Of a DNA stretch of 64,000 bases, positions 9,209 to 14,570 are shown one piece after another (positions within the stretch are counted from its first letter, which is position 1; each line of letters opens with the position of its first letter). Both the position numbers and the translations under genes were made by a program. Source of the stretch: Haladaptatus sp. ZSTT2 (GTDB lineage Archaea > Halobacteriota > Halobacteria > Halobacteriales > Halococcaceae); the NCBI RefSeq assembly GCF_037081775.1, contig NZ_JBAMHQ010000002.1, positions 62,001 through 126,000 of the forward strand. Direction: 5' to 3'. The notes under the pieces are model-generated. The model had not been told where the DNA came from. It did not search any database and was given only the letters and a program-made list of their open reading frames with translations.

Positions 9209-9370
9209 CGTCGGGAGTAGAGCGCTCTGACTGAGGAGATCAAATTGGCCAACCCACGGGAACTGGCGATCGAAGTGAGGGGTTTCGAGCAGTTGAGTGC
9301 GATAGCCAAGGAGGATTGAGAGAAAAAGGGTGTGCTGAAAAAACGGTGAAGAGAGAAGCCAGAGGATGGC

Positions 9371-9477
9371 GTTTCCGTTGTTTCCGTTGTTAGGTTTGAT
9401 ATAAACGAGTGGGAGGCCGCGGTTTCCGTTGTCTCGATTGTAATAAAGACAGTCCCACCCCACTATTTCCGCTGTTT
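9371..9477 (+). repeat. Origin repeat cluster B
   Basis: Forward copies: a tandem GTTTCCGTTGTTTCCGTTGT at 9371-9390, GGTTTCCGTTGTCTC at 9421-9435 and CACCCCACTATTTCCGCTGT at 9456-9475. The tandem copy mirrors the one at 8928, with a 10-base step, so closely spaced initiator binding is possible. Confidence 0.8.
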
Positions 9478-9479
9478 AG

Positions 9480-9700
9480 AAAAACAGGTGGGAGGGGGTT
9501 AGAGAGCGCGTGACCTAGATAAGCGATAGCTTTATTACAAAAGTCGTACAACCAAAACCGTAGTGGAGAACTAACAACTAATTAAATCTCTACACTAGTT
9601 GTTTGTTTTGTAATTCATCTATCATATTATTCGCTTCTTCATCGAATCGGTCTGCTTTCCTACCCACTTCAACAGGCACTCCTCACACTCCCTCCTCCTC
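9480..9700. other. AT-rich stretch between opposed origin repeats (candidate unwinding element)
   Basis: Between the last forward repeat (ending 9477) and the first reverse repeat (9711) the sequence is rich in A/T, notably about 9520-9645 with CTAATTAAATC-like and TTTTGTAATTC-like stretches. Its location between convergent repeat groups suits a duplex unwinding element. Inferred from position and composition only. Confidence 0.5.
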
Positions 9701-9710
9701 TCGCTCAAAG

Positions 9711-9945
9711 ACAGCGGAAACAATGGGGTGGGTGTGTCCACCCAACACCTTCTCATTATCTCGATCAATCCCTCTCCATACAACAGCGGAAACGATGGTG
9801 GGTGGTGGGCAACCTTCTGAATATCTCCACCCCACCTCCATCATCATTCGTTATATTCTCCGCCTCTCCAAATCGTCTCAACACCATGGTAACACCACTG
9901 TTTCCGTTGTCTCGGGTGTGTCTGACACCACTTTTTCCGCTGTCC
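9711..9945. repeat. Origin repeat cluster C with G-rich flanks
   Basis: Reverse copies ACAGCGGAAACAATGGGGTG at 9711-9730 and AACAGCGGAAACGATGGTGG at 9782-9801, then forward copies AACACCACTGTTTCCGTTGT at 9891-9910 and GACACCACTTTTTCCGCTGT at 9924-9943. The TGGGGTGGG flank recalls the G-string of archaeal origin recognition boxes. Confidence 0.8.
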
Positions 9946-10513
9946 TACCACTGCTCAATCGAGGGGAGCTGTCTCTTCTGTGCGAGTCGAGCGTCTGGCC
10001 GTGGCTCGTAATCTGGATTGTTCGCGAACTCGGTAGGGATCGTACTTTTCAGGAACTGAGGACGGGTCTAGCGTAACCATCTACATTCCTGGTGATGACG
10101 CGAGTAAGCAAGTCCAAACGGCGTAATCCGACCTCCTCACAAATGCTACCATCCCCTCCACGACCCGTAGACGTGCCACACCCTGTTTCTGTGCTGTTTC
10201 TAACTCCTCACACTCAGTCATTCACGGAGTGCGTTGGGTTTCACAGCGTAGGTTAGGTTCGCATACTGATTTATTTCATCACAACAGACGCCCGGCTCAG
10301 CAGCCACGCCGACATATTCAAAAATTTTTACATTTATGCCTAGTAGTGCCCTGATAGCCAGTTTCTACTCCGACAAAACACGCCAGTGTCTCTTGCAACT
10401 CAATAGTTTCTATAATTTATATTCTATTAACTAAATTACCAATCAGGATATATTTAAGCTGTGACTTGCCGAATATTGACTGTTCGACTGCGTCCGTCGA
10501 CAGGAGGAAGCAA
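9946..10513. other. Non-coding interval with operon promoter
   Basis: No believable gene. The last 150 bases are AT-rich and contain an ATATATTTAAGC box at about 10447-10456 that probably drives the three-gene operon starting at 10514, giving a leader of roughly 35 bases with a strong ribosome binding site. Confidence 0.55.
10502..10507 (+). promoter_or_regulatory. Strong Shine-Dalgarno site AGGAGG
   Basis: AGGAGG ends six bases before the GTG at 10514. Most genes in this window have no such site, so it both fixes the GTG start (against an in-frame TTG at 10466) and marks this operon as translated from a leadered transcript. Confidence 0.75.
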
Positions 10514-11479
10514 GTGACATTCACAGACAATAGCGACGTGTACACGTCGCTCCACGAAGACGGCATCAACCAAGTCATCCGGCACACCATGCAAAAGCGG
10601 CCGTCGCTCTTTCATTACGGCACCGAGAATGTGGTGAACTCCGCCGCACTCATGCGACGATTCCGACAGTTTAGCGGCCTTTGTGCCCGAATCAACTACG
10701 CGCCTGAGGTTGTCTTGTGGGACAATCCTTTGATGAGCGTTGAAGACCCGTTCCCGGTGCTCGGGACTGACGATCTCGTCGCGCTCGACTACTGCTTTCA
10801 AGTAACTAATCTCGACATCGACTTCTCGCCTGACGACCCCCCTGCTGACGTTGGGGACCAACAGTTCGCCGCACGCGTCGTGGTTTGTGCAGGCCTTGCC
10901 TGTCCGGAGGAAGAAGCGTTCGCACAGATTCGCGACGAACTCGCAGACCTCCGCGCGGAGTGGGGCGACCGACTTACTGACGCGGACTTCCGCACAGAAC
11001 TTGGCTTGCCCCTGATTCCATCCGCAGAGGGACTCTCGTGTTTCTGTCTCGGTGTGACCGTCATCGGGTCGGTTAGCATGCGCGGGCCGGGTGCCGATGG
11101 GACTGTCGTCACCGAGGAGGATGCAGAGACCGGCCTCAGCATCGAGATTGCGGGAACCCCACAACTCAGAGTCGACGACGTAACTCTCTTCGAACCAGAC
11201 GGTGACCGTTTCACCTTCCCGGAGGGATTGACCGCGAGCATGACCTGCTATCTGCGCTCGTTCGTCGAGTTCTCGCTCATTCCGGCGCTTGAAGCTGCAC
11301 TTGAACGCATCGTCATCGACCTCCCCACCGAAGGATTCCTCGCGTTCGATTTGAGCGGGGCAACCCTCAGAATCTCGTTCCCAACGTCGGGGGCGATTCC
11401 GAACAACCCCGCCATTGAGGATGATCAACTTAAAGTCTATACTGACGTGACGCTCACTAGCCCCGGAGGCAGCCCATGA
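10514..11479 (+). CDS. Unknown protein, first gene of a three-gene operon
   Basis: A 321-residue acidic protein I cannot assign. No signal peptide or membrane segment is visible. It contains a central SVEDPFPVLG motif (about residue 78) that recurs as SIEDPFPVLD near the end of the next protein. The second half is strand-rich with alternating hydrophobics. It ends with an amphipathic helix (SLIPALEAALERIVIDLPT) and a last strand pair (LKVYTDVTLTSP), an order reminiscent of the C-terminal layout of lipid-binding TULIP domains; this is a weak structural guess. The start is GTG with AGGAGG upstream. The stop overlaps the next ATG by four bases, so the genes are translationally coupled. Confidence 0.75.
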   Translation: MTFTDNSDVYTSLHEDGINQVIRHTMQKRPSLFHYGTENVVNSAALMRRFRQFSGLCARINYAPEVVLWDNPLMSVEDPFPVLGTDDLVALDYCFQVTNLDIDFSPDDPPADVGDQQFAARVVVCAGLACPEEEAFAQIRDELADLRAEWGDRLTDADFRTELGLPLIPSAEGLSCFCLGVTVIGSVSMRGPGADGTVVTEEDAETGLSIEIAGTPQLRVDDVTLFEPDGDRFTFPEGLTASMTCYLRSFVEFSLIPALEAALERIVIDLPTEGFLAFDLSGATLRISFPTSGAIPNNPAIEDDQLKVYTDVTLTSPGGSP

Positions 11480-12477
11480 GCCACCTGACGATGGCCGTCT
11501 CAGAGGCGATGTTCAACAACGTACTCGACGTGTTGCTCGACGAACGCGTGACGACCATCGACTACGAGAAGGAAGCCGAAATCTCAGGCGCGCTCACCGC
11601 AGGCATCGACGTAGAGGCACACTTCGAACTCGACGCCATCGATTTTCGCGACACGCCAGACCGCATCAAAATCGACGAACTCGACGTGGTCTACGACGTG
11701 CTCGATCTCTATCTCGACGTCGATATCGACGAAATCTGTATCGGCGGATTCTGCATCATTCCGTGGTTCAACGGCTGTGCCGTTCGCGCGCCTGAAATCT
11801 GCCTGTTCGAGGCCGACCCCGACCTCCACATCCCCCTGTCGCTCGGGGGAATCGTTCGTTCTGAGGTATCGGCGCTCGTTGCGCTCACCGTCGACTATGC
11901 CCACAACCGTGGGACGATGGACTACCTGACGGCGCAGGTCGAAGAACACAACCAACTTGCGGCGCGCCCGGCCGGTGAGACCGGCCCGCTCGACCCACCC
12001 GTGGTCAACAGTTGGGACGTGTCGTTTTACCCCGACACGCTCGATATCGACCTGCTCGACGTGGCCGACATCGTTGGCGACCTGCTCGAAAGTGCCATCG
12101 AATTCCTCATCGACGATCTTCTCGGGTGGCTTCCAGGCTGGGCGAGGGACGTACTCCATGGCATCTTCGGCTCGTTTGTCGACATCGTTCGGGCGGCACT
12201 CGACTTGCCCGACGACCTCGGAGAGTGGCTCTCTGACCTCATCGGCGTGAGCCTCGACTTCGAGGGGTTCCTCATCGAAGTGCTTGATGAGTTCCTCTTC
12301 GACTATCCAGTCTTCAGCATCGAAGACCCGTTCCCGGTGCTTGACTGGAGTCCACCGCTTGGCGAACCCGTGCCACCTGGCGAGACCCGGCTCATCCCAG
12401 TCAAAGTGCCTATCGAGAACCTTGCTATCGACCTCGCAGACACCGAACTCGTCATCACCATGGAGGTGGGCAACTGA
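11476..12477 (+). CDS. Unknown protein, second gene of the operon (shares EDPFPVL motif)
   Basis: A 333-residue very acidic protein. The N-terminal half is made of alternating short strands (IDELDVVYDVLDLYLDVDID) with a Cys-containing ICIGGFCIIPWF patch. Residues about 185-290 form amphipathic helices (DIVGDLLESAIEFLIDDLLG, WARDVLHGIFGSFVDIVRAA). The end repeats the neighbour's motif (FSIEDPFPVLDW) and closes with a strand NLAIDLADTELVITMEV. It has no signal peptide. I infer a distant relation to the first protein, possibly forming a hetero-complex. It overlaps both neighbours by four bases or one base. No known family recognised. Confidence 0.75.
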   Translation: MSHLTMAVSEAMFNNVLDVLLDERVTTIDYEKEAEISGALTAGIDVEAHFELDAIDFRDTPDRIKIDELDVVYDVLDLYLDVDIDEICIGGFCIIPWFNGCAVRAPEICLFEADPDLHIPLSLGGIVRSEVSALVALTVDYAHNRGTMDYLTAQVEEHNQLAARPAGETGPLDPPVVNSWDVSFYPDTLDIDLLDVADIVGDLLESAIEFLIDDLLGWLPGWARDVLHGIFGSFVDIVRAALDLPDDLGEWLSDLIGVSLDFEGFLIEVLDEFLFDYPVFSIEDPFPVLDWSPPLGEPVPPGETRLIPVKVPIENLAIDLADTELVITMEVGN

Positions 12478-13445
12478 TGCTCCGACTCAACAAACACCTA
12501 TTCACCGAAACGAAAACCGACAGCGGTGCACTGACCGTCCTCGGAACGCTCATCCACCGATTTACCAGTCCCGGCGAGTATCTCGTCGCGGTCAGCCGCG
12601 CGGGAAAACCTGTTGGTCAACGGCTCATCGTCGTCGATGCACAGTACCACTCGACCCGCGCGGTCATCGACCTCGCGAGCATCGCGGAGGGGAGTGGTGA
12701 CACAGCGTGCTCGTGTGAGCCAGAAACGTTCGACTGTATTCGCCCTGATGGCTACGCTATCTTCCACGTCTCGCGCGGGCGAGGTGGCTATGCGGTCACC
12801 ATCTCTTCGCTCACAGACGACAAAGGCGACCAAGGTGACAAACGCACCAAAGGCGACAAACGCACCAAAGGCGACAAACGCACCAAAGGCGACAAACGCG
12901 ACACACGCACCAAACGCAACAAAAGCGACGGCCACGAGTTCGACAGCGCGACACTCACCGAGTACGACACCGTCTCTGTGACGTTGTTCCGTCCCGGGAC
13001 GTACGCACTGCGAAACGAACTCACCGAGCACGAAGTGACCGTCGAAGTGTCCTATCCAGACGGAGAACGTCCCGGCGAACCGGTTCGCGTCACATGCACC
13101 GAGCGCGGCTTTTCACCTGATGGCATCACGCTCGCCCCGGCACAGGGGCTCGTCGTCGACATCGAAACCAAAGCGAGGGTGACAGTCACTCTCCGTGAAC
13201 CTCACAAGCGCGCCACGGCCGAGGTGTCGGGCGACCGGCCTCCGCGGGGTGCGCGTACTCGCGCTGGCCGCCCGAGCGTCGACCCGCGAAAGCACTCTGT
13301 CGACCGCCTCAAACGCGAACTAGCGCACGTCGATCGGCCGAGCGAACTTCGTCTCATTCACGCAATCGAGCGTGCCTCACGCAACCGGAGCGATGCCCGT
13401 ACAGCCATCGAAGAACGCCTACGTGCTGTCAACGACCGCAACTAA
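12477..13445 (+). CDS. Unknown protein with collagen-like GDKRTK repeats, third gene of the operon
   Basis: A 322-residue protein. Residues about 1-105 form a probable beta-sandwich (PGEYLVAVSRAGKPVGQRLI) with a Cys cluster CSCEPETFDC. Residues about 115-150 are a hydrophilic Gly-Asp-Lys-rich tandem repeat (GDKRTK, four times) like the GDKGDK linkers of fibre and tail proteins. A second beta-rich domain follows (VTLFRPGTYALRNELTEHEV, a cupredoxin-like strand pattern), then a basic C-terminal tail (VDPRKHSVDRLKRELAHVDR) with probable helices. The start shares bases with the preceding stop. No family recognised. The repeat spacer suggests an elongated binding or scaffold protein acting with the two upstream products. 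Confidence 0.75.
   Translation: MLRLNKHLFTETKTDSGALTVLGTLIHRFTSPGEYLVAVSRAGKPVGQRLIVVDAQYHSTRAVIDLASIAEGSGDTACSCEPETFDCIRPDGYAIFHVSRGRGGYAVTISSLTDDKGDQGDKRTKGDKRTKGDKRTKGDKRDTRTKRNKSDGHEFDSATLTEYDTVSVTLFRPGTYALRNELTEHEVTVEVSYPDGERPGEPVRVTCTERGFSPDGITLAPAQGLVVDIETKARVTVTLREPHKRATAEVSGDRPPRGARTRAGRPSVDPRKHSVDRLKRELAHVDRPSELRLIHAIERASRNRSDARTAIEERLRAVNDRN
12831..12902 (+). repeat. 18-bp tandem repeat inside the third operon gene
   Basis: Four adjacent 18-base units of AAAGGCGACAAACGCACC (12831-12848, 12849-12866, 12867-12884, 12885-12902; the middle two identical, the outer two with one or two changes). Each unit encodes six residues, so copy number can change without breaking the frame. Likely a slippage-variable linker. 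Confidence 0.85.
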
Positions 13446-14241: not shown

Positions 14242-14547
14242 TCGGAGGGCTGAGACGACAGAGACCGAGTGCTGGTGAGCAGCACCGTTGACCTAAATTC
14301 TTGAAATAACCGATTCGAGTTGGATTGCTAACTCGAGCAGGCGTCCTGACCCGGGTTTGAAGCACGTCTAGTTCGGTGGTTCGTCTGAAACCGTGCATCC
14401 TGACGGTGCTATTGCCCGTGTAGTCTCAACTTCCGGCCCCACCTTTATATATCGCAATATTTGGTTTATATAACTCTCGTTCCGTCTCTTGAGGCAACCA
14501 AATCTCGACCACAGTAACCTCGAAAACCACTCCACAGCGGCCTCATT

Positions 14548-14570
14548 GACACCACCATTTCCGCTGTTTA
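14548..14570 (+). repeat. Orphan origin-type repeat
   Basis: ACACCACCATTTCCGCTGTT at 14549-14568, matching the long origin repeat copies at 9010 and 9071. It lies 4.6 kb from the main cluster, at the 3' end of the DUF6788 gene, and overlaps its stop codon. Confidence 0.7.

What the first reader, a model, noticed from the sequence alone, without database searches (positions are those of the whole stretch)
10514..13445. Unrecognised three-gene operon with shared EDPFPVL motif and a collagen-like repeat protein
Three translationally coupled genes between origin and par operon. Two proteins share EDPFPVL and an ending of amphipathic helix plus strand that recalls TULIP lipid-binding domains; the third has two beta domains joined by a GDKRTK repeat. 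No signal peptides, so the system acts in the cytoplasm unless exported differently. Candidate undescribed complex; strong start signal suggests high expression.
Basis: inference. Interest (0 to 1): 0.7.

Follow-up and report, generated by a model that had tools for sequence, protein, structure and literature searches.

The report
Archaeal two-protein complex plus adaptor
Three overlapping genes on a salt-loving archaeon's secondary replicon encode a rare protein set, unknown to the family databases; methanogens make the first two proteins as one fused chain, so they very probably work together, most likely as a lipid-carrier-like tube with the third protein as its adaptor.

Summary
Window 10514-13445 carries three overlapping genes (A, B, C) behind a GGAGG signal, next to an Orc1/Cdc6 gene and origin repeats on one side and parA on the other. 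A and B share EDPFPVL (8 of 20,000 shuffles reach seven shared residues). No Pfam, NCBIfam, PHROG, PADLOC or PDB family matches them credibly. The operon recurs, in the same order with the same kind of short overlaps, in three distant haloarchaeal lineages and is under purifying selection. In methanogens (McrA-positive, probably Methanosarcina) A and B are fused into one ~620-residue protein without C. A and B are therefore two halves of one unit. The order of predicted elements, twice in tandem, fits a TULIP-like lipid carrier, but this is unproven: single-sequence AlphaFold failed (pLDDT 40). The 'collagen-like' repeat is a lineage-specific six-residue expansion without Gly-X-Y, absent elsewhere. 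C ends in an exchangeable helical module: a 54-residue type shared with EtfA, GvpO and DUF2589 proteins, or a helix-hairpin-helix in another genus. No phage, toxin or fixed neighbour accompanies the set; it is patchy and partly plasmid-borne.

The parts
10448..10458 (+). TATA-like element (ATATATTTAAG), candidate archaeal promoter
   Evidence: seen in sequence; function inferred
10503..10507 (+). GGAGG Shine-Dalgarno, 6 nt before the GTG start of gene A
   Evidence: seen in sequence
10514..11479 (+). gene A, 321 aa, N-terminal half of the A-B unit
   Evidence: relatives G119 43-45%, G427/G444 28-30%, fused form in methanogens; dN/dS 0.16
10742..10762 (+). EDPFPVL in A (residues 77-83); varies in relatives (EEPLPVV, SRIPVL, TDPLSII)
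11476..12477 (+). gene B, 333 aa, C-terminal half of the A-B unit; most conserved of the three
   Evidence: 60% in G119, 34-35% in G427, 26-33% in methanogen fusions; dN/dS 0.02
12322..12342 (+). EDPFPVL in B (residues 283-289), followed by the final strand pair; kept as IEDPFQVL in methanogens
12477..13445 (+). gene C, 322 aa: two beta regions, linker, C-terminal helical module
   Evidence: 43% in G119; N-terminal part in G427/G444; element order from a low-confidence model
12818..12929 (+). 18-bp tandem repeat encoding GDKRTK; lineage-specific, not Gly-X-Y
13281..13442 (+). 54-residue helical module, also in EtfA, GvpO and DUF2589 proteins of haloarchaea; replaced by helix-hairpin-helix in genus g86

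Best explanation
A and B are the two halves of one cytoplasmic protein unit that binds a hydrophobic ligand, most likely a membrane lipid or isoprenoid, in a tandem tubular (TULIP-like) fold. C is an accessory: two beta domains on a flexible linker plus an exchangeable helical module that attaches the complex to a partner or to itself. SHOWN: operon conservation and order, A-B fusion in methanogens, purifying selection, exchange of C's end module, patchy and partly plasmid-borne distribution. INFERRED: that A and B bind each other directly, the TULIP-like fold, the lipid ligand, and the adaptor role of C.
For: A-B-C recurs in G000, G119 and genus g86 with the same kind of short overlaps. A and B are one continuous frame of 606-623 aa in G794 and G797, and in G750 up to an insertion sequence that breaks the gene; the genomes with McrA are methanogens. 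dN/dS 0.02-0.19 in g86, 0.33-0.44 own vs G119. A and B both begin with a 'strand - [S/H]E..hN' element (hhalign E 0.0067 but probability only 5.7%) and both carry the [E/D]P.PV...strand element. Order of elements strand-helix-strands-helix-strand with an amphipathic helix at B 232-252 and alternating strands at B 43-50, 77-83, 116-121, 309-320 (weak method). Known TULIPs often occur as tandem pairs or dimers and are often missed by sequence search (PMC5507252, PMC6791001). C end module exchange.
Against: No match to any TULIP family of Pfam (P47, DUF1439, DUF2140, DUF2993, DUF4403) or to a TULIP structure by sequence. Single-sequence AlphaFold of B is uninformative (pLDDT 40). No lipid-related neighbour genes. 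The A/B shared start is weak on its own. C is absent in the methanogens, so it is not essential to A-B.
Confidence: 0.45

Rival explanations
1. A and B form a joint complex of some other beta-rich fold that does not bind lipid (a scaffold, chaperone or polymer-like assembly); C anchors it.
For: No significant match to TULIP families or structures; long Gly/Pro-rich inserts in A of g86; C-end module shared with GvpO, an assembly protein of gas vesicles.
Against: Order of elements and tandem architecture fit TULIP better than any alternative considered; the amphipathic helix and final strands are conserved.
Confidence: 0.33
2. Works like the OrfX/P47 proteins of bacterial gene clusters: cytosolic lipid-binding accessory proteins, without signal peptides, that assist another protein.
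For: Same general picture: several co-encoded proteins, TULIP fold in P47/OrfX2, lipid binding in vitro, spread with mobile elements (PMC7020563, PMC6791001).
Against: No Pfam P47 match and no toxin-like neighbour in the loci read.
Confidence: 0.1
3. A plasmid maintenance, partition or toxin-antitoxin function, suggested by the position between origin and parA.
For: Position in this window; plasmid-borne in G444:C7, a circular 153-kb contig.
Against: In G119, G427 and the methanogens the genes are not next to parA or orc; no match to partition or TA families; PADLOC empty.
Confidence: 0.05
4. A phage tail or fibre related set.
For: Weak PHROG matches of C to tail proteins (E 0.014-0.039).
Against: Those matches overlie the low-complexity repeat; no relatives in phage or IMG/VR collections; no structural phage genes nearby.
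Confidence: 0.02

Closest known systems
TULIP (tubular lipid-binding) superfamily: BPI/CETP, SMP, YceB/DUF1439, DUF2140, DUF2993, DUF4403
   Same: Apparent order of elements (strand-helix-strands-helix-strand) and tandem or dimeric arrangement
   Different: No detectable sequence relation; no confident structure; cytosolic; no archaeal TULIP paper was found in the one search made of the held library
P47/OrfX proteins of bacterial orfX-p47 clusters
   Same: Several co-encoded proteins; two of them (P47, OrfX2) hold two TULIP-like domains each
   Different: No P47 Pfam match; no associated toxin gene; archaeal; partner C has no counterpart
EtfA N-terminal / GvpO N-terminal helical module of haloarchaea
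   Same: Gene C ends in the same ~54-residue module (own C 35-46% identical to it)
   Different: No Pfam model for it; in C it is C-terminal and exchanged for helix-hairpin-helix in one genus
Enolase EDP motif
   Same: IEDPF...DW short resemblance in B (E 0.0058, 31 residues)
   Different: Confined to ~30 residues and one motif; judged chance

Membership tests
TULIP superfamily | Tubular fold: beta-meander wrapped with a long helix and a hydrophobic cavity | tested here: inconclusive
   Single-sequence AlphaFold of B, mean pLDDT 40.2; order of elements from a simple propensity/moment analysis fits
TULIP superfamily | Binds lipid | not testable with these tools
   needs biochemistry
TULIP superfamily | Tandem or dimeric TULIP domains (common, not universal) | tested here: inconclusive
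   A-B fusion shows a two-half protein; homology of the two halves weak
P47/OrfX family (PF06597) | Sequence match to the P47 profile | tested here: not met
   No P47 match at E<=1 for A, B, C or at E<=5 for the methanogen fusions
YceB/DUF1439, DUF2140, DUF2993, DUF4403 | Pfam profile match | tested here: not met
Collagen-like proteins | Gly-X-Y repeat | tested here: not met
   Repeat unit GDKRTK, Gly every 6th residue; absent in G119 and G427
Phage tail proteins | Homologues in phages or a phage gene neighbourhood | tested here: not met
Known anti-phage defence systems | PADLOC profile match | tested here: not met
Translationally coupled operon with co-inherited products | Same order and overlaps in distant genomes; gene fusion | tested here: met

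The most novel reading that the evidence does not exclude
The first archaeal tandem TULIP-type lipid carrier: a soluble, cytoplasmic A-B tube that moves archaeal ether lipids, isoprenoids or a hydrophobic cofactor, recruited through an exchangeable adaptor C, and carried as a mobile gene set between haloarchaea and methanogens.
Probability: 0.35. Interest if true: 0.7.

Novelty: new variant of a known kind. Interest (0 to 1): 0.45.

Why it matters
It defines an undescribed archaeal protein pair, absent from Pfam and NCBIfam, with gene-fusion evidence that the two proteins act as one unit. If the TULIP reading is right, it would put tandem TULIP lipid carriers in archaea, whose membrane lipids differ from those of bacteria and eukaryotes, and would bear on the age of the fold. 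The fused methanogen form is a single chain that could be expressed and tested directly. The end module of C also reveals an uncatalogued haloarchaeal helical domain shared by EtfA, GvpO and DUF2589 proteins.

Tried and rejected
Single-sequence AlphaFold of B (pLDDT 40) and C (pLDDT 44) were too poor; the Foldseek run on C gave nothing at E<=0.001 (submitted, 110 collected) and is not used. Homologues fetched by the genome search were not put into the structure predictor, because its stated rule admits only window sequences and loci from other named tools. The apparent B relative in G005 is enolase, and PDB matches to enolase cover one short motif: chance. Weak A/B matches in G066, G125, G041, G008, G441 and genus g51 lie over unrelated genes (oxidoreductase, nucleotide-sugar dehydrogenase, enoyl-CoA hydratase) or reading frames without a relative (four of the eight g51 loci were not opened). 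130 of 392 genomes matched the C profile, but apart from G000 and G119 the listed matches cover its end region, in a few with some of the stretch before it. DUF2589 proteins share only that module with C; no similarity to A or B. No relatives found in plasmid (A, B and the fusion), phage (B and the fusion) or IMG/VR collections, nor in two peptide-pattern scans of the 84,980-species contig set; pattern scans miss distant relatives, so bacterial relatives remain possible.

Full report
OBSERVATION. The window lies on a 404-kb contig (G000:C2) of a 3.2-Mb haloarchaeal genome. Gene A starts at GTG 10514 behind GGAGG (10503-10507) and a TATA-like ATATATTTAAG (10448-10458); A and B overlap as ATGA, B and C as TGATG. 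Proteins are 321, 333 and 322 aa. EDPFPVL occurs once in A and once in B; seven shared residues arise in 8 of 20,000 shuffles. No signal-peptide-like N-terminal segment is seen. To the left lies an Orc1/Cdc6 gene with TTTCCGTTGT-type repeats between it and A, to the right parA.

RELATIVES. Pfam, PHROGs, NCBIfam, PADLOC and PDB give no credible family for A, B or C. Whole-genome searches found full sets: G119 (A 43%, B 60%, C 43%), and genus g86: G427, G444 on a 153-kb contig with a 104-bp terminal overlap, hence circular, and a decayed second copy in G444 in which the first part of B runs into the last residues of C, with transposase-like genes upstream. A is found once in its own genome, and the two other genomes of its genus searched lack it. 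The operon is rare: beside own, G119, G427 and G444 no true relative appeared among 392 order genomes (A), 391 class genomes (B) and the 170 genomes of G119's family (A); weak matches were inspected and rejected.

FUSION. A phylum-level search reached genus g151. G794 and G797 encode A and B as one protein of 606-623 aa; G750 has the same frame broken by an insertion sequence, the end of B lying beyond it; G792 has a B end at a contig edge. McrA is present in G794 and G750 over its cut-off and in G797 in two pieces, so these are methanogens; with genome sizes up to 5.8 Mb in the genus they are probably Methanosarcina (genus inferred). B's half again begins with the strand plus S-x-x-x-[FL] element. 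No C lies beside the fusions read or was found in the genus (one weak 37-residue match in G575). A gene fusion of two operon neighbours is strong evidence that they act together.

SELECTION. dN/dS G427 vs G444:C7 is 0.16 (A), 0.02 (B, 241 codons), 0.19 (C); the decayed copy's A gives 0.38 against the C7 copy; own vs G119 0.37, 0.33, 0.44 at high dS. All three are kept proteins, B most strictly.

ARCHITECTURE. Aligned relatives give for B: N-terminal strand and helix, several alternating strands, a Cys/Pro-rich loop in most, a run of amphipathic helix, then a [E/Q/T][D/-]P[F/Y] element and a final strand pair. A has strand-helix, P.PV..T...strand, strands, helix, P.NPA.ED..L.V strand. A simple propensity and moment analysis marks an amphipathic helix at B 232-252 and alternating strands at B 43-50, 77-83, 116-121, 309-320 and A 306-311; this is weak evidence. 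A and B profiles align at their starts only (E 0.0067, probability 5.7%). This order, twice in tandem, resembles TULIP proteins, and TULIP families are known to escape sequence search (PMC6791001, PMC5507252). The fold is not proven: B alone gave pLDDT 40.

GENE C. A low-confidence model shows two strand-rich regions (34-108, 166-239), a linker over the repeat and three helices (275-321). The repeat is missing from G119 and G427. The last 54 residues belong to an uncatalogued module found at the N-terminus of EtfA and GvpO and the C-terminus of a DUF2589 protein; in G427 the same place holds a helix-hairpin-helix (HHH_5 E 8.8e-6, just under the gathering score). Exchange of the end module suggests an adaptor role; this is inference.

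VERDICT. A real, conserved, undescribed archaeal operon; A and B are halves of one unit. TULIP-like lipid handling is the most likely working, at 0.45.

Noticed in passing
L104-L107 (GvpO), L046/L055/L061/L067/L070 (EtfA), L108 5108-6049 and L109 5523-6332 (DUF2589), L043 1489-2145: An uncatalogued ~54-residue haloarchaeal helical module (DPxxxTVxEL...IDD...L.xER.G.xRxTAxxAIxxRL) sits at the N-terminus of EtfA and GvpO and at the C-terminus of DUF2589 and other proteins; Pfam has no model for it.
   Followed up: partly
L108 4483-7071, L109 4763-7216: Haloarchaeal gene set of two DUF2589 proteins, one with the module above, followed by a gene ending in tandem helix-hairpin-helix repeats; function unknown.
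   Followed up: no
L080 11610-12480: Insertion sequence with a transposase gene inside the A-B fusion gene of a methanogen (G750), flanked by inverted CTATCCGAAAAGT; similar short stretches occur elsewhere in the genus.
   Followed up: partly
L034 9276-10750: Decayed second copy of the operon in G444: B truncated and running into the last residues of C, transposase-like genes upstream.
   Followed up: yes
L102 13558-15057: Methanogen protein with a long TPTTTE repeat and a PEGA-like stretch near the A-B fusion.
   Followed up: no
window 9366-9943 and about 14541-14562: Scattered TTTCCG(T/C)TGT motifs on both sides of ABC, probably origin recognition repeats of the replicon.
   Followed up: partly
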